A stretch of DNA of 64,000 nt from Gaiellales bacterium. GTDB taxonomy: Bacteria > Actinomycetota > Thermoleophilia > Gaiellales > JAICJC01. Within the stretch, counting starts at the first letter, position 1, and each line of letters begins with the position of its first letter. The stretch spans positions 1 to 64,000 of the forward strand of contig DASUHM010000008.1 in NCBI GenBank assembly GCA_036273515.1, written 5' to 3'. The notes beneath the pieces are model-generated. The model saw only the letters and a program-made list of their open reading frames with translations, was not told the DNA's origin and searched no databases. The position numbers and the translations under genes were made by a program. Positions 20,044 through 51,464 of the stretch are shown here, one piece after another.

Positions 20044-20074
20044 GCACCAAAAGGGGTCAGACCCCTTTCGGTGC
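20044..20074. repeat. REP-like palindrome, solo copy A at the prfB stop codon
   Basis: 31-nt palindrome with 15-bp arms (GCACCAAAAGGGGTC against its complement, one mismatch) around a single central base. The same sequence occurs twice at 47.2 and 48.0 kb, flanking the RAYT gene. It supplies the last five codons (APKGV) and the TGA stop of prfB. Confidence 0.85.
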
Positions 20075-21189
20075 AACCGCTGCGCGGCGCAGGAGCTCGG
20101 CCCGGATGAGCTCGTCGAGGTCTCCGTCGAGGACGCCCTGGGCGTTCCCGACCTTCACGTTCGTGCGGTGGTCGTTCACCATCGTGTACGGGTGCAGGAC
20201 GTACGACCGGATCTGGCTCCCGAAGGAGATGTCCTGGGCCTCCCCGCGCTCCTTGGCGAGCGCCGCCTCGCGCTCCTCGTGCTCCCGCTCGAGCAGCCGC
20301 GACTTCAGGATCCGCATCGCCTGGGCCTTGTTCTGGAGCTGCGAGCGCTCGTTCTGACACTGGACGACGATCCCCGTCGGGATGTGCGTCAGCCGCACGG
20401 CCGAGTCGGTCTTGTTGACGTGCTGGCCGCCGGCGCCCTGCGAGCGATACGTGTCGATGCGCAGGTCGGCCTCGTCGATCTCGACGTCGACGTCGTCGTC
20501 GACGAAGGGCGACACCTCGACCTGGGCGAAGCTCGTGTGGCGGCGGTGGGCCGAGTCGAACGGCGAGAGCCGCACCAGCCGGTGGACGCCCTTCTCGGCC
20601 TGCATGATGCCGTAGGCGTTGTCGCCGGTCAGCGTGAAGGTGGCGCTCTTCAGGCCCGCCTCCTCCCCCGGCGTCGCCTCGAGCAGCTCGGCCTTGAAGC
20701 CGCGCGCCTCCGCCCAGCGCAGGTACATGCGCAGCAGCATCTCGGCCCAGTCCTGGCTGTCCGTGCCGCCGGCGCCCGCGTGCACGCCGACGACGGCCGG
20801 GCCGGTGTCGTACTCGCCCGTGAACAGGGCCTCCTCCTGGAGCCGGCCCAGATCGCCTTCGAGCGCCGCCAGCGACCCCTCGAGCTCGGCCTTCCAGTCG
20901 GGATCGTCCGCGGCCATCTCGAGCATCCCGTCGAGCTCGCGCGTCTCGGACTCCAGGCGCTCGAACATGTCAAGGTTGCGCTGCGTCCTGGCCAGCTCGG
21001 ACGAGGTGCGGGCCGCCCGCCGCTGGTCGTCCCAGAACCCGGGCTGCACGGTCTCGCTCTCGAGCTCGGCCTTGCGCGCGCTCAGCGAATCCGGGTCAAA
21101 GGTAATCACGAACCCAGTGCAGCTGGGCTCTGATCTCCTCGACCGCCGCGCGCAGGTCGTCCAGCGAGCGCGGCTCGGGCGCGTGGCCG

Positions 21190-46029: not shown

Positions 46030-47133
46030 CTAGGCCGCGGGCGGGGTCGCCAGGGCCTGCGCGAACTCGACGAGGATGCGCCGGTAGGTGGCGAGCGAGG
46101 CGATCTCGACGTGTTCGTCGGGGCCGTGGTGGCCGGCGCCGGACGGGCCGAATTCGACGCACGGGATGCCCCGTTCGAGGAAGAGCACGGCGTCGGACGC
46201 GCCGTGGCGACCGACCCCGATCGCGCGGCCCTCGCGGTGGCCGCGGACGACGTGCCGCAGCAGCTTCACGTGGTCGTGGTAGGGGTTCAGCTGGGCGGCG
46301 GGCACCTGATAGAGCAGCTGGGGCTCGGCGTGCAGGGTGCGCAGCTGGCGCATCACCTCCTGCGGATCCTGTGTCGGCAGGTGGCGGATGTCGACGTCGA
46401 TCCGGCAGGTGTCCGGGACGGCGTTCACCGCCTTGCCGCCGGCGATGCGGCCGAGGCTGACCGAGGGGCCGTCGAAGAGCTCGGAGCGCTCCGAGGCGAA
46501 CGGCAGGTCGCCGATGCGGCGGTAGAGGTCGATGGCCTTGAGGACGGCGTTCTCGCCCAGCCAGGGGGTGCTGCCGTGAGCGGCGCGGCCGTGCACCTCG
46601 AAGCGGACGACGAGCGCGCCCTTGGCCTGGACGCCGATCTGGAGGTCGGTCGGCTCGCCGCAGATCGCGAACTCGCCCAGGTTGCCGGCGTCCGCCAGGC
46701 GGGCGGTCGCCTTCGTGTTCAGCGTCGCGGCGTCGGACTCCTCGTCCGGGGCGATCAGGAGCTTCACGCGCATGCCCTGGAGCCGCCGTGGCGCCCCGGC
46801 GAGGTCGACGAGCGCGCCGAGCATCGCGGCCAGCGCGCCCTTCATGTCGTACGCGCCGCGGCCGTAGAGGCAGGCGTCGTCGCGGCGCGGCTCGAACTGG
46901 GCCGGATCGCCGGGGACCACGTCGACGTGCGCGCTCAGGATGAGCGTGCGCGGCCCCTCCCCGACGGTCGCCACGACGGCCGGCCGGCCGTTCACCTCCG
47001 TCACCTCGTGCCGGATCGCCTGTCCCTCGAGCCACCCGAGCAGGAACCCCACCGCCCCCCGGATCCCCTCCTCGGTCGAGGTGTCGAACCCGATCAGCCG
47101 CTCGGCCAGGGCAAGATCGTCGACACCGCTCAC
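46030..47133 (-). CDS. M20 family metallopeptidase/deacylase (ArgE/DapE-like)
   Basis: 367 residues. Zinc-site motifs of the M20 family: SAHVDVVPGD (His), GRGAYDMKGALAAML (Asp bridging), APDEESDA (Glu pair), and a late His in EFGPSGAGHHGPDEHVEI. The dimerisation domain lies between about 175 and 290. Candidates are acetylornithine deacetylase, succinyl-diaminopimelate desuccinylase or a general aminoacylase/carboxypeptidase; no neighbour decides this. GTG 47133 is used; upstream codons come from a REP palindrome and are not family-like. Confidence 0.85.
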   Translation of the reverse strand: MSGVDDLALAERLIGFDTSTEEGIRGAVGFLLGWLEGQAIRHEVTEVNGRPAVVATVGEGPRTLILSAHVDVVPGDPAQFEPRRDDACLYGRGAYDMKGALAAMLGALVDLAGAPRRLQGMRVKLLIAPDEESDAATLNTKATARLADAGNLGEFAICGEPTDLQIGVQAKGALVVRFEVHGRAAHGSTPWLGENAVLKAIDLYRRIGDLPFASERSELFDGPSVSLGRIAGGKAVNAVPDTCRIDVDIRHLPTQDPQEVMRQLRTLHAEPQLLYQVPAAQLNPYHDHVKLLRHVVRGHREGRAIGVGRHGASDAVLFLERGIPCVEFGPSGAGHHGPDEHVEIASLATYRRILVEFAQALATPPAA

Positions 47134-47154: not shown

Positions 47155-47187
47155 CGCACCAGGCGGGGTCAGACCCCTTTTGGTGCG
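47155..47187. repeat. REP-like palindrome copy B, upstream of RAYT gene
   Basis: 33-nt imperfect palindrome with CGCACC/GGTGCG outer arms and a GGGGTC-A-GACCCC core. In reverse complement it is almost identical to copy C at the other end of the transposase (one base different over 31), so the two flank the gene as inverted repeats. Confidence 0.85.
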
Positions 47188-47253
47188 CACTCGTAACTGA
47201 GCTGCGACACCAAGCCTCTATCCCCGTTACGCCCGTCTGAGTACGGTGATCGG

Positions 47254-47976
47254 GTGCCGCGAGCGGCCCGTATCCGAAGCTCGGATTGCCTGTACCACGT
47301 AACGGCTCGTGGGAACGGGCGCATTCCGATTCTTGCGACAGACGCGGACCGCCGGGTACTCCTGGCGACGCTCAGAGACGCTGTAGGCGAGTTCGGCTGG
47401 CGCTGTCATTCGTATTGCGTCATGAACACCCACTACCACCTGCTGCTCGAGACGCCGAAAGTGAATCTGCCCGAGGGCATGCAATGGCTTAACGGCACGT
47501 ACGGGACGCGATTCAACTCGGCACACGACCGCTCGGGGCACGTGTTCCAAGGCCGCTACGACGCGCGCCTGATTCGCGGCCACGAGCACGCGCTCGAAGT
47601 CAGCCGCTACATCCCCCTAAACCCGGTCCGGGCAGGAGGGTGCACAGATCCCTCTCAGTGGCCATGGTCGAGCTTCCGGGCGACGATCGGTATGGCACCG
47701 GTCCCACCGTTCCTTTCGACTGGGTCGGTGCTCAGGTGGTTCGGTGAAGGGGCCGCGGCGCGCGCCGCCTATCGCGCGTTCGTTCTTGAAGGGATCGGCG
47801 TCCGCGATCCTCGGAGCGCAGCGCTGGCAAGAATCCTCGGAGGGTCGACGTCGGACCGCATCCGGTACGCCCATGAGGAGTGCGGATACCCCCTGCGCGA
47901 GATCGCCGACCACATCGGCGTACACCACACCACCCTCATGAGGCGGCTTCGAGCGGACGCACCAAAAGGGGTCTGA
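47254..47976 (+). CDS. REP-associated tyrosine transposase (RAYT, Y1_Tnp) with C-terminal HTH
   Basis: 240 residues. HUH nuclease core: YHVTARGNGR near residue 14, the metal-binding NTHYHLLLE (His60, His62), and the active-site tyrosine in SRYIPLNPVRAG (Tyr119). The tail (RIRYAHEECGYPLREIADHIGVHHTTLMRRL) is a helix-turn-helix. RAYTs bind and cut single-stranded REP hairpins and are thought to spread them. The GTG start is 12 nt after TACGCC. The last codons (APKGV and TGA) lie inside palindrome copy C, so the gene ends within its own substrate. Confidence 0.92.
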   Translation: MPRAARIRSSDCLYHVTARGNGRIPILATDADRRVLLATLRDAVGEFGWRCHSYCVMNTHYHLLLETPKVNLPEGMQWLNGTYGTRFNSAHDRSGHVFQGRYDARLIRGHEHALEVSRYIPLNPVRAGGCTDPSQWPWSSFRATIGMAPVPPFLSTGSVLRWFGEGAAARAAYRAFVLEGIGVRDPRSAALARILGGSTSDRIRYAHEECGYPLREIADHIGVHHTTLMRRLRADAPKGV

Positions 47977-47992
47977 CCCCGCTTGGTGCGTC
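47956..47992. repeat. REP-like palindrome copy C, overlapping RAYT and metH stop codons
   Basis: 31-nt core palindrome at 47959-47989 (arms GCACC..., core GGGGTC-T-GACCCC), extended by GAC/GTC to 37 nt. The RAYT TGA stop lies in its centre, and the metH stop codon (47993-47991) overlaps its right edge. Convergent genes therefore end in one palindrome, which could also serve as a bidirectional terminator. Confidence 0.85.
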
Positions 47993-50900
47993 AGTCACCC
48001 GCGCGGATGCCGCGGCGGGCGGAGAAGTAGACCGCCTGCGGGTGGTGGATCACGATCGCGGCGGTCGTTTGCTCCGGGATGAACTGGTAGGCGGCGGAGA
48101 GCTCGATGCCCAGTTCGGCGGCGGGCGGGAGCAGCCGGAGCACCAGCTCGTGCTGCTCGAGGTCGGGGCACGCCGGGTAGCCCCACGAGTAGCGGCGGCC
48201 GCGGCCCACCTCGAGGCCGAGCTCGCTCAGGATGCGGCGGTGGACGTACTCGGCCAGGCCCTCCGCGGCCTCCACGGCCAGCCCGTGGGCGAAGTACGCC
48301 TCGCCGTACTCGCCCGCCGCCTGGAGCGCGTCGACGTGCGCCGTCGCCTCCGGCCCCGCGGTCACGATCTGCACGGCGATCACGTCGCCGCCGTCGCCCG
48401 CCTCGCGCAGGTAGTCGGAGATGCAGAGCCGGTCGTGGCGGTCCTGGCGCGGGAACTCGAACCGGCCCAGCTCGTCGCCCGCCTCGTCGAGCACGACCGT
48501 GTCGTCGCCGTCCGCAACCGCCCGGAAGAACCCGTACACCGCCCGCGGCACGATCCAGCCCTGCGAGACCGCCTCGGCCTGCATGCGCGCCCGGCGCGGG
48601 CGAAAGTCGTCGGCCAGCAGCCGCTCCCACTCCTCGCCGCGAACGCCCTTCCCGCCCCACGAGAGCTTGTACAGCGAGCGCTCGTCCATGAGCGCGAACA
48701 CGGCCGCCGGGTCGATCGCGTCGAGCGTCCGCGCCCCCTCGAACGGCGGCTCCGGCACCTCCACGTCGCGCCGCAGCGAGTCGCGCCCGGCCCGGGCGGG
48801 AGCCGGCTCGGGCGGAGGCGCCGGCTTGGGCGTGTCGCGCTCGGCGATCGCCTCGGCCCGCCGCTCGGCGATCACCCCACCGCGCAGCTCCCCGTCGCTC
48901 AGCCGGTCCATGACGCCCAGCCCCTCGAACGCGTCCTTGCAGTAGAAGACGCCCGGCTCGTACATGCGGCCGTCGTCGAGGAACGCGATCCGGCGGCCGA
49001 ACGCGCGGTTGATCGCCGCACCGCCGACCAGCACCGGCACCCGCAGGCCGCGGTGGTCGAGCTCGTGCAGCGCGAGCGGCATCTGCCGCGACGTCGACAC
49101 GAGCAGCGCCGAGAGCCCGACGGCGTCGGCCCGCTCGGAGACGGCGCTGTCCATGATCACGTTCAGCGGCACCTGCCGGCCCAGGTCGACGACCTTGTAG
49201 CCGTTGTTCGAGAGGATCGTGCCGACCAGGTTCTTGCCGATGTCGTGCACGTCGCCGAACACGGTCGCGAGCACGACGGTCGCCTTGGCCTGGCCCTCGA
49301 GCCGGTCGAGATACTGCTCGAGGTGCGCCACCGAGCGCTTCATCACCTCGGCCGACTGGAGCACGAACGGGAGGATCAGCTCGCCGGCGCCGAAGCGGTC
49401 GCCGACGTCCTTCATCGCCGGCAGGAGCACGTTGTTCAGGACGTCGACGGCGCGGTCGTTGTCGCGCCCGCCGCGCTCGTCGAGGGCCGTGTCGATGTCG
49501 TCCTCGACGCCCTCCTTCGTCCGGTGCAGGATCTTGGCGTGCAGTCGCTCGTCCGTCGTCATCCCGGCGAACGGATCCTCCTGCGGGGCGGCGATGACAT
49601 CGGCGTCCTCGAAGTGGGCGATGCAGCGCTCGAGGGCGTCCGGGCGGCGGTCGAAGATCAGGTCGTCGGCCAGCTCCCGCTCGACGTCCGAGATCTCGTA
49701 GATCGGACGCACGTGGGTCGGGTTCACGATGGCGGCGTCGAGCCCCGCATCGATGGCGTGGTGCAGGAAGACGGAGTTGAGGACGGCCCGGGCCGCCGGG
49801 TCGAGGCCGAACGAGACGTTCGAGACGCCGAGCACCGTCCACACGCCCGGCAGCTCCACCTTGACCGCCCGAATGCCCTCGATCGTCTCGACTGCGCTCC
49901 GGCGGAACTCGTCCTGGCCGGTCGCGAGGGTGAACGTGAGCGTGTCGAAGATCAGGTCGCCCGGATCCATCCCGAACTCGCCGACGCAGACGTCGTGGAT
50001 GCGGCGGGCCACGTCCAGCTTGCGCTCGGCCGTCTTGGCCATCCCGTCCTCGTCGATCGTAAGCGCCACGCAGGCCGCGCCGTGGCGCACGGCGTGCGGC
50101 ACCACCGCGTCGATCCGCTCGCGCCCGTTCTCCATGTTGATCGAGTTGATCAGGGCGCGGCCGGGATACGTCTCGAGCGCGCGGGCGACGACGGCGGCGT
50201 CGGTCGAGTCGAAGACGAGCGGCATCTCGACCCCCATCGCGAGCCGCTTCACGAGCGTCGCCATCATGTCGGCCTCGTCGGCGCGCTCGGTCAGTGCGAC
50301 GCACACGTCGAGCGCGTGCGCGCCGCCCTCGACCTGGTCGCGCGCGATCGCGACGGCGCCGTCGTAGTCGTCGTCCAGCATCACCTGCTTGAACGCGCGG
50401 CTGCCCTGCGTGTTCACCCGCTCGCCGATCAGGAGCGGCTTCGGCTGCTGCTCGAGCGCGGAGGCGGTGATCGCGCTCGCCAACGACCGCTCGAAGACGA
50501 CCTGGCGCGGCGCCCGGCCGGCCCCCGACACCGCCTCGCACAGCGCCACGATGTGCTCCGGGGTGCTGCCGCAGCAGCCGCCCACGACCGGCGCGCCGAG
50601 CTCCGAGACGAACTGGCCCAGCTCGCGGGCCATGTCGGCCGGGCCGAGCGGGTAGGTGGCGACGCCGTCGACGTTCTTCGGCAGCCCCGCGTTCGGGATG
50701 ACCGAGACGGGAGCCGGGGCGTGCTGGCACAGGTAGCGCACCGGCTCGCGCAGGTGCTCGGGGCCGACCGAGCAGTTGACGCCGATCACGTCGGCCCGCA
50801 TCCCGTGCAGGATTGCGAGCACCGCGCCGACGTCCGTGCCGAGCAGCATCCGCCCGGTCACGTCGAGCGCCACCTGCACCTGCAGCGGCACCGACCGGCC

Positions 50901-51464
50901 CAGCTCCCGGAACGCCGCCCGGGCGCCGTCGATGGCCGCGCGCGTCTCGAGGATGTCCTGCTGCGTCTCGATGATGATCAGGTCCGCCCCGCCCTCGACG
51001 AGCGCGGCCGCCTGCTCGCAGAACGCCTCCGACAGCCCGGAGAACGAGATCCCCGACAGCGCCGGATCGTCGCTCGACGGCAGCATCCCGCTCGGCCCGA
51101 TCGAGCCGGCCACGAACCGCGGCCGCGACGGGGTCGAATAGGCGTCGGCGGCCTTGCGGGCGATCCGGGCCGCGCACAGGTTGATCTCGCGGGTGTGGTC
51201 GCCCACCCCCCACTCGGTCATCCGGATCCGCGACGCCTGGAAGCTGTTCGTCTCGACGACGTCCGCACCCGCCTCCAGGTAGGCCAGGTGGATACCCTCG
51301 ATCGCGTCGGGCCGGGTGACCGAGAGGTGGTCGTTGTTGCCGAGCTGGCGGTCGCCGCCGAAGTCGGCGGAGGTCAGGTCGAGCGCCTGGATCTGCGTGC
51401 CCATGGCGCCGTCGAAGACGACGGCACGGCGCTCGATCAGCTCCAGATACGGGTGGCCGGCCAC
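47991..51464 (-). CDS. metH: Cobalamin-dependent methionine synthase
   Basis: 1157 residues, all four modules: homocysteine-binding (1-310; zinc cysteines C231, C297, C298 in GGCCGS), folate-binding (about 340-610), cobalamin-binding (about 640-880; DVHDIGKN with the axial His740), and activation domain (about 920-1150). Transfers a methyl group from methyltetrahydrofolate to homocysteine. The inter-domain linker after residue 880 is Pro/Ala-rich. GTG start lies 6 nt after TAGCAT, with no upstream leader long enough for a cobalamin riboswitch. 15 bp after the DUF4389 gene. Confidence 0.96.
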   Translation of the reverse strand: MAGHPYLELIERRAVVFDGAMGTQIQALDLTSADFGGDRQLGNNDHLSVTRPDAIEGIHLAYLEAGADVVETNSFQASRIRMTEWGVGDHTREINLCAARIARKAADAYSTPSRPRFVAGSIGPSGMLPSSDDPALSGISFSGLSEAFCEQAAALVEGGADLIIIETQQDILETRAAIDGARAAFRELGRSVPLQVQVALDVTGRMLLGTDVGAVLAILHGMRADVIGVNCSVGPEHLREPVRYLCQHAPAPVSVIPNAGLPKNVDGVATYPLGPADMARELGQFVSELGAPVVGGCCGSTPEHIVALCEAVSGAGRAPRQVVFERSLASAITASALEQQPKPLLIGERVNTQGSRAFKQVMLDDDYDGAVAIARDQVEGGAHALDVCVALTERADEADMMATLVKRLAMGVEMPLVFDSTDAAVVARALETYPGRALINSINMENGRERIDAVVPHAVRHGAACVALTIDEDGMAKTAERKLDVARRIHDVCVGEFGMDPGDLIFDTLTFTLATGQDEFRRSAVETIEGIRAVKVELPGVWTVLGVSNVSFGLDPAARAVLNSVFLHHAIDAGLDAAIVNPTHVRPIYEISDVERELADDLIFDRRPDALERCIAHFEDADVIAAPQEDPFAGMTTDERLHAKILHRTKEGVEDDIDTALDERGGRDNDRAVDVLNNVLLPAMKDVGDRFGAGELILPFVLQSAEVMKRSVAHLEQYLDRLEGQAKATVVLATVFGDVHDIGKNLVGTILSNNGYKVVDLGRQVPLNVIMDSAVSERADAVGLSALLVSTSRQMPLALHELDHRGLRVPVLVGGAAINRAFGRRIAFLDDGRMYEPGVFYCKDAFEGLGVMDRLSDGELRGGVIAERRAEAIAERDTPKPAPPPEPAPARAGRDSLRRDVEVPEPPFEGARTLDAIDPAAVFALMDERSLYKLSWGGKGVRGEEWERLLADDFRPRRARMQAEAVSQGWIVPRAVYGFFRAVADGDDTVVLDEAGDELGRFEFPRQDRHDRLCISDYLREAGDGGDVIAVQIVTAGPEATAHVDALQAAGEYGEAYFAHGLAVEAAEGLAEYVHRRILSELGLEVGRGRRYSWGYPACPDLEQHELVLRLLPPAAELGIELSAAYQFIPEQTTAAIVIHHPQAVYFSARRGIRAGD

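What the first reader, a model, noticed from the sequence alone, without database searches (positions are those of the whole stretch)
47155..47992. RAYT transposase bracketed by inverted palindromes: a complete REPtron-like unit
A 240-aa RAYT with intact HxH and Tyr lies between copies B (47155-47187) and C (47956-47992) of the same 31-nt palindrome, in opposite orientation and differing at one base. A third copy lies 27 kb away at 20044. Known RAYT/REP systems (mostly from proteobacteria) pair a transposase with its palindromes like this. An actinobacterial-type version with a C-terminal HTH and such strong, T-poor palindromes may be undescribed.
Basis: partly seen in the sequence, partly recalled or inferred. 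Interest (0 to 1): 0.72.

Follow-up and report, generated by a model that had tools for sequence, protein, structure and literature searches.

The report
Transposase gene with its hairpin population
An actinobacterium carries a small single-strand DNA transposase gene bracketed by two mirror-image hairpin sequences whose 13-base core occurs about 265 times in the genome, nearly always between genes; this is a known kind of system (RAYT/REP), but in a branch of the transposase family where such genome-wide hairpin populations had not been reported, and with a core that also recurs in unrelated phyla.

Summary
A 240-aa HUH/Y1 transposase (47254-47976) lies between inverted copies of a 31-nt interrupted palindrome (47156-47186, 47959-47989). 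The core GGGGTCNGACCCC occurs 265 times in the 4.07-Mb genome; the same pattern read backwards occurs 0 times. Copies are extragenic and cluster near stop codons. A second RAYT (C8:68943) is bracketed by its own subtype. Comparison with a sister species gives two natural experiments. At RAYT locus 1 the bracketing stem differs (GCACC vs CCCGCC), and the CCGCC subtype is about 10-fold denser in the sister (3 vs 30 per Mb). At locus 2 the bracketing core differs (GGGGTC vs GGGGAC), and the GGGGAC core is about 7-fold denser (10.5 vs 70 per Mb). Relatives without a RAYT match rarely have the core. So this is a REPtron-like unit, but not a classical GTAG REPtron: no GT[AG]G foot, guide-contact residues partly replaced, C-terminal HTH. 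It best fits the TIRYT / TnpAREP subclass 2.1 type, for which REP-like sequences were reported as not found. New here: a large population in this actinobacterial order, a fixed core with a co-evolving outer stem, and recurrence of the core across phyla. Mobilisation by the transposase is inferred, not shown.

The parts
47156..47186 (-). Upstream bracketing palindrome (copy B), 31 nt, type A: GCACCAAAAGGGGTCTGACCCCGCCTGGTGC on the minus strand; core at 47165-47177
47254..47976 (+). RAYT coding sequence, 240 aa, GTG start, HUH/Y1 transposase; by reading HYH = codons at 47431-47439, Tyr119 = 47608-47610, NPVRAG follows
   Evidence: motif positions read directly from the translation
47884..47952 (+). 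C-terminal helix-turn-helix-like stretch (residues 211-233)
   Evidence: HTH_38 E 1.6e-4, 21.8 bits, below cut-off 27; the G002 orthologue passes the cut-off with 27.4 bits
47959..47989 (+). Downstream bracketing palindrome (copy C), 31 nt, type A, inverted relative to copy B; core at 47968-47980
47974..47976 (+). RAYT stop codon TGA, supplied by the core of copy C
   Evidence: read directly
20044..20074 (.). Third copy of the palindrome in the window; its core supplies the TGA stop of a gene called at 20057-21109 on the minus strand
46030..47133 (-). Left neighbour gene, divergent to the RAYT (by eye an M20/ArgE-DapE-type hydrolase, not tested); the same neighbour lies beside the RAYT in G002
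47991..51464 (-). Right neighbour gene, convergent with the RAYT (by eye cobalamin-dependent methionine synthase, not tested); its stop abuts copy C

Best explanation
This is a REPtron-like unit of the TIRYT / subclass 2.1 kind. The resident HUH-Y1 transposase recognises hairpins formed by its own flanking palindrome on single-stranded DNA, cuts beside them with Tyr119 and joins them elsewhere. Over time this has seeded the genome with non-autonomous copies of about 31 nt while the gene itself stays put. The inner core GGGGTC-N-GACCCC is kept and the outer stem (GCACC, CCCGCC, GTGAA and others) changes together with the protein, so each RAYT amplifies its own subtype. Selection leaves copies mainly between genes and near stop codons. 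Shown here: copy number, bracketing, covarying stems, extragenic placement, matched differences between RAYT brackets and genome populations at two loci, and presence/absence of single elements between species. Inferred: cleavage, strand transfer, the single-strand substrate, and that this protein is the agent.
For: 265 core copies against 0 of the reversed control. Two RAYTs, each bracketed by inverted copies of its own subtype. CCGCC subtype 4 in 1.24 Mb of G000 vs 30 in 0.98 Mb of G002 (p 1.9e-7), matching the brackets of the G002 RAYT at the same left neighbour; GGGGAC core 13 vs 69 (p 1e-13), matching the brackets at the second orthologous locus. Outer-stem positions 5-9 are 0.77-0.84 Watson-Crick against shuffled means of 0.40-0.69. 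Single-hairpin presence/absence sites. Core presence associated with a RAYT match in the order, p 1.5e-4. Placement 82 of 96 intergenic against 9.5% of sequence. The general scheme (inverted flanking REPs, fast RAYT evolution at fixed loci, co-evolving REPs) is established for proteobacterial RAYTs (PMC2817692), and E. coli TnpAREP cuts and joins single-stranded REPs in vitro (PMC8266576).
Against: No biochemistry. GCACC elements are as dense in G002, whose known RAYT brackets are CCGCC, so older populations persist without an obvious cognate RAYT. In G001 the commonest sampled stem (GCAAC, 7 of 19) was not found around the RAYT loci I looked at, and the predicted stem made up only 6 of 19. 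Four RAYT-negative genomes still have five or more cores, although these are incomplete assemblies of 66-73%. Three core-rich genomes of other phyla gave no RAYT-family match.
Confidence: 0.82

Rival explanations
1. The palindromes are host elements kept for their function (bidirectional terminators or mRNA 3'-end stabilisers), and the transposase merely sits beside two of them.
For: They lie close to stop codons (median 32 nt), are over-represented between convergent genes and depleted between divergent ones, form stable hairpins, and are often retained at the same place in two species (25 of 32 placed sites).
Against: No Rfam match. The core is absent from RAYT-bearing genomes of the sister genus G003 and G004, and other RAYTs in the order are bracketed by other palindromes. 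The subtype that is abundant differs with the bracket of the local RAYT at two loci. A secondary terminator role is not excluded.
Confidence: 0.12
2. RAYT plus both palindromes is an ordinary insertion sequence that transposes as one unit, and the scattered palindromes are remnants of it.
For: The gene is framed by inverted repeats, as in a typical transposon.
Against: Only two RAYT matches against 265 cores in the genome, the two are just 46% identical, and in G002 a RAYT sits beside the same left neighbour gene. Presence/absence sites involve a single hairpin.
Confidence: 0.03
3. Much of the present variety arises not by fresh insertion but by conversion of one palindrome by another through the shared core, perhaps started by RAYT nicks.
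For: The same intergenic site can carry different outer stems in the two species, in G002 CCGCC and GCACC elements often lie side by side, and one G002 element (C158:18963) joins a CCGCC arm to a GGTGC arm.
Against: Only one hybrid was counted among 91 G002 elements, and clean single-element presence/absence sites exist. Different stems at one place could also be independent insertions into the same short intergenic space.
Confidence: 0.2

Closest known systems
TIRYT / TIRtron (Di Nocera 2013, PMC3733652), equated with TnpAREP subclass 2.1 by PMC6006769
   Same: HUH-Y1 protein with a C-terminal HTH-like extension; inverted flanks holding GGGGTCAG, which fits the reported GGGGWSAS motif; flank overlapping the 3' end of the gene; no GT[AG]G foot.
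   Different: The flank is itself a strong hairpin with 265 core copies in the genome. TIR families were described as only moderately abundant, subclass 2.1 as lacking REP-like sequences, and Actinobacteridae as carrying only subclass 1.1. Here the host is called actinobacterial.
Classical RAYT/REP system or REPtron (Nunvar 2010, PMC2817692; E. coli and Stenotrophomonas models, PMC8266576)
   Same: Two inverted palindromes around a fixed, fast-evolving Y1 gene with the NP(L/V)(R/K)xG motif; hundreds of extragenic copies; palindrome and protein change together; internal mismatches in the stem, as in E. coli REPs.
   Different: No GT[AG]G foot; W94 and E100 of the E. coli GTAG pocket are replaced (read from the alignment); HTH extension.
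REPIN (REP doublets; Bertels and Rainey 2011, PMC3116915)
   Same: The second RAYT's subtype (GTTC-GGGGTC) is mostly in close pairs, usually inverted and 50 bp apart (29 of 42 in pairs); the G002 GGGGAC elements form doublets mostly 15-21 bp apart.
   Different: The window RAYT's own subtype is mostly solitary (26 of 32 not in a close pair), which suggests that a single hairpin can be the unit.
IS200/IS605 (TnpA of IS608, ISDra2)
   Same: Y1/HUH catalytic fold by sequence (Pfam Y1_Tnp) and hairpin substrates.
   Different: RAYT signature motif present, HTH extension, gene not multiplied as a unit, hundreds of separate hairpins.

Membership tests
RAYT (REP-associated tyrosine transposase) | HUH motif plus one catalytic Tyr (Y1 transposase) | tested here: met
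   Y1_Tnp E 3.8e-11; HYH 60-62 and Y119 by reading
RAYT (REP-associated tyrosine transposase) | NP(L/V)(R/K)xG motif next to the catalytic Tyr and conserved N-terminal Thr (PMC2817692) | tested here: met
   NPVRAG at 123-128 and T17 in YHVTARGN, read from the translation
RAYT (REP-associated tyrosine transposase) | Score above the curated NCBIfam cut-off for REP_Tyr_transpos | tested here: not met
   73.6 bits, cut-off 80; 15 of 17 matching cross-phylum genomes also fall below it
REPtron | Gene flanked by two inverted copies of one palindrome | tested here: met
   also the second RAYT and several others in the order
REPtron | Many dispersed, mostly extragenic copies of the cognate palindrome | tested here: met
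   265 copies; 82 of 96 sampled are intergenic
GTAG REP (classical REP) | GT[AG]G at the 5' foot of the hairpin | tested here: not met
   4 of 72 feet in G000 (4.1 expected) and 8 of 110 in G002 (4.4 expected)
GTAG REP (classical REP) | Residues of E. coli TnpAREP that contact GTAG (W94, Q95, E100, H101, R104) | tested here: inconclusive
   Q95 and R104 kept, W94, E100 and H101 replaced, in a weak alignment to 4ER8 (E 0.0071)
TIRYT / TnpAREP subclass 2.1 | C-terminal HTH-like extension | tested here: met
   HTH_38 21.8 bits, below cut-off, in the window protein; 27.4 bits, above cut-off, in the G002 orthologue. The second RAYT lacks it
TIRYT / TnpAREP subclass 2.1 | GGGGWSAS motif in the flanking inverted repeats | tested here: met
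   GGGGTCAG in both flanks
TIRYT / TnpAREP subclass 2.1 | Grouping with the published subclass 2.1 proteins in a tree | not tested
   The published sequence set was not at hand; only RAYTs fetched here were used
TIRYT / TnpAREP subclass 2.1 | Absence of REP-like hairpins near the gene, as reported in PMC6006769 | tested here: not met
   The flanks are hairpins with hundreds of genomic copies. This is a reported finding rather than a definition of the group
RAYT (REP-associated tyrosine transposase) | Cleavage and joining of the cognate single-stranded hairpin | not testable with these tools
   Needs biochemistry

The most novel reading that the evidence does not exclude
GGGGTC-N-GACCCC is a recognition module shared, by descent or repeated convergence, by TIRYT-type transposases in several phyla. 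The outer stem acts as a fast-evolving address that ties each transposase to its own hairpin population, and orthologous loci can switch address within a genus.
Probability: 0.35. Interest if true: 0.75.

Novelty: new variant of a known kind. Interest (0 to 1): 0.55.

Why it matters
[quoted passage not shown] This genus offers two orthologous RAYT loci whose brackets and genome populations differ together, in one case by one core base pair (T-A against A-T). That makes specificity directly testable by swapping protein and hairpin. It also shows that REP-like systems are common in this actinobacterial order, and raises the question why one 13-nt core recurs in distant phyla.

Tried and rejected
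(1) A first gene-calling attempt, trained on the longest ORFs, called antisense frames. It was discarded and redone with an amino-acid prior, which recovers the expected neighbours. (3) Scanning the 116 cross-phylum contigs for nearby RAYTs with a profile of my own found only three; part of that profile's input had been taken on the wrong strand and was dropped. A whole-genome family search was more informative. (4) In some searches the upstream/downstream labels for minus-strand loci are swapped; this does not affect the inverted-repeat result. (5) No paper in the library holds the core string. The domesticated-transposase paper 10.1093/gbe/evx146 is not held, so its RAYT groups could not be compared. 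(6) No Rfam match. (8) About 30 chance hits of the 17-mer are expected in 257 Gb under uniform composition (own estimate), so single hits prove nothing; only whole-genome counts with their control were used.

Full report
Observation. The window lies at G000:C8:1-64000 of a 4.07-Mb, 98-contig genome. A 240-aa ORF (47254-47976, GTG start) encodes a Y1/HUH protein with H60-Y-H62, Y119 and NPVRAG. It matches the NCBIfam REP-associated tyrosine transposase model at 73.6 bits, just below the cut-off of 80, and weakly the one solved relative found by sequence, TnpAREP 4ER8 (E 0.0071). Its flanks are 97% complementary inverted arms holding a 31-nt interrupted palindrome. As 31-mers the two copies differ at one base, and a third copy is at 20044-20074; none is expected by chance. 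Both strands of both copies fold better than shuffles (z -4.2 to -5.5). The RAYT's last codons and its TGA stop are inside the downstream palindrome, which abuts the stop of a convergent gene at 47991-51464.

Genome population. The core GGGGTCNGACCCC occurs 265 times in the genome and the same pattern read backwards 0 times. In about 456 kb of fetched sequence it is by far the commonest palindrome with 6-nt arms and a one-base loop (36; next 14). Around the fixed core the outer parts fall into subtypes: A (GCACC/GGTGC), C (CGTTC, mostly inverted doublets 50 bp apart), a GTGAAT-like type and others. Type A is mostly solitary (6 of 32 in a close pair) and type C mostly paired (29 of 42). Among elements other than type C the outer stem covaries strongly (offsets 5-9: Watson-Crick 0.77-0.84, shuffled means 0.40-0.69), while the position next to the core keeps an A.G mismatch.

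Location. With a self-trained gene caller, 82 of 96 cores in 1.24 Mb are intergenic, although intergenic sequence makes up 9.5%. Thirteen lie in the last 60 nt of a gene, and nine of those genes use the core's own TGA as stop codon. Convergent junctions are over-represented (36 of 82 against 18%, p = 7e-8) and divergent ones depleted (9 of 82 against 30%); G002 gives the same picture.

Pairing of transposase and palindrome. The genome has two RAYT matches, the second 46% identical at C8:68943-69410 and bracketed by inverted type C elements. In the sister species G002 a RAYT lies beside the same left neighbour gene. An alignment running through that neighbour into the RAYT is 85% identical at first count and 81% in a gapped realignment, with the neighbour clearly better conserved than the RAYT, whose protein is only 54% identical. 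The G002 brackets are CCCGCC...GGCGGG. The right neighbour differs in G002. CCGCC elements number 4 in 1.24 Mb of G000 and 30 in 0.98 Mb of G002 (p = 1.9e-7), while GCACC elements are equally dense. At the second locus the G002 orthologue (syntenic flanks; sister in the tree) is bracketed by GGGGAC doublets, and that core counts 13 in G000 and 69 in G002 (p = 1e-13). A third species, G001, was used for a prediction noted beforehand. Of 19 sampled cores, by my reading 6 carry a stem like that of its best RAYT, 7 a second stem (GCAAC) and none the GCACC or CCGCC stems; I count this as partly met. In the order, 61 of 98 genomes with a RAYT match have the core against 7 of 31 without (p = 1.5e-4). 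RAYT-bearing relatives without this core can have another palindrome, e.g. GGTGCCGGGCACC around the G003 RAYT.

Movement. Flank comparison places 32 G000 sites in G002, 25 of them occupied there too. Among unshared sites the cleanest, G002 C117:170 and C74:4806, show one hairpin of about 31-39 nt with no clear target duplication. Shared sites often carry different outer stems in the two species, and one G002 element is a hybrid of two stems, so conversion between elements may also occur.

Breadth. Of 396 genomes sampled from the phylum, 11 hold five or more copies, scattered over several families (tallied from the table). A 17-mer scan of GTDB contigs led to genomes of other phyla with many copies and almost none of the control: a Planctomycetota MAG 372, an Omnitrophota MAG 221, Aquibacillus albus 163, Clostridiales VE202-21 139, Salipaludibacillus 96, Lachnoclostridium An76 67, Faecalicatena orotica 62. 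These genomes were chosen because they held the 17-mer, so they say nothing about frequency. Of 20 such genomes 17 have a RAYT-family match. The RAYT is bracketed by the core on both sides in Lachnoclostridium An76 and has it on one side in VE202-21 and Olsenella stercoravium. Other RAYTs in these genomes are bracketed by different palindromes, and three core-rich genomes gave no RAYT match, so the cross-phylum link is suggestive, not shown. On a tree of 51 RAYTs the GGGGTC label needs nine changes, at least five forced by well-supported branches: common descent with repeated switching and convergence both remain open.

Comparison with the known. Nunvar 2010 (PMC2817692) described inverted flanking REPs, fast RAYT evolution at fixed loci and co-evolving REPs; all are seen here. 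The GT[AG]G foot is not, and W94, E100 and H101 of the GTAG pocket are replaced in a weak alignment. The C-terminal HTH and GGGGTCAG flanks match the TIRYTs of Di Nocera 2013 (PMC3733652), equated with TnpAREP subclass 2.1 in PMC6006769. Those papers report TIR families as moderately abundant, subclass 2.1 as lacking REP-like sequences, and Actinobacteridae as carrying only subclass 1.1. The present case extends that group: its flanks are high-copy hairpins. The second RAYT lacks the HTH yet has its own population, so the HTH is not needed for the pairing.

Verdict. Known in principle, a new variant in detail. The association is well supported; mobilisation by the protein is inferred from anatomy and comparison. 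The host is called actinobacterial because its RAYTs group with those of Solirubrobacter in the tree; the tools did not name it.

Noticed in passing
G000:C8:68943-69482 (L017), outside the window: Second RAYT, 180 aa, without the HTH extension, bracketed by inverted copies of a different palindrome subtype and ending on the core's TGA; only about 22 kb from the first.
   Followed up: yes
20044-20074 in the window: The third palindrome supplies the stop codon of a neighbouring gene (20057-21109, minus strand). Nine of 96 sampled cores in G000 and five in G002 do this for some gene.
   Followed up: partly
G002 stretches, e.g. L296:6032-6064: A second palindrome family, GGGGACNGTCCCC, mostly in doublets 15-21 bp apart, 69 copies in 0.98 Mb of G002 against 13 in 1.24 Mb of G000.
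   Followed up: yes
G137 (Omnitrophota MAG), G130 (Acidobacteria MAG), G147 (Vicinamibacteria MAG): 221, 57 and 53 copies of the same core without any match to the RAYT family model; unexplained.
   Followed up: no
L021, L022, L026, L032, L042, L230: Other RAYTs are bracketed by a different inverted motif, GGGGTCAGGTCTTGC or a close variant, in two separate lineages.
   Followed up: no
L214 (Faecalicatena orotica), L231 (Lachnoclostridium An76): RAYTs framed by terminal inverted repeats of roughly 90 nt containing GGGGACGTA...TACGTCCC, shared in type between two Lachnospiraceae genomes.
   Followed up: no
G002 C158:18963: A hybrid element with a CCGCC arm on one side and a GGTGC arm on the other, hinting at conversion between subtypes through the shared core.
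   Followed up: partly
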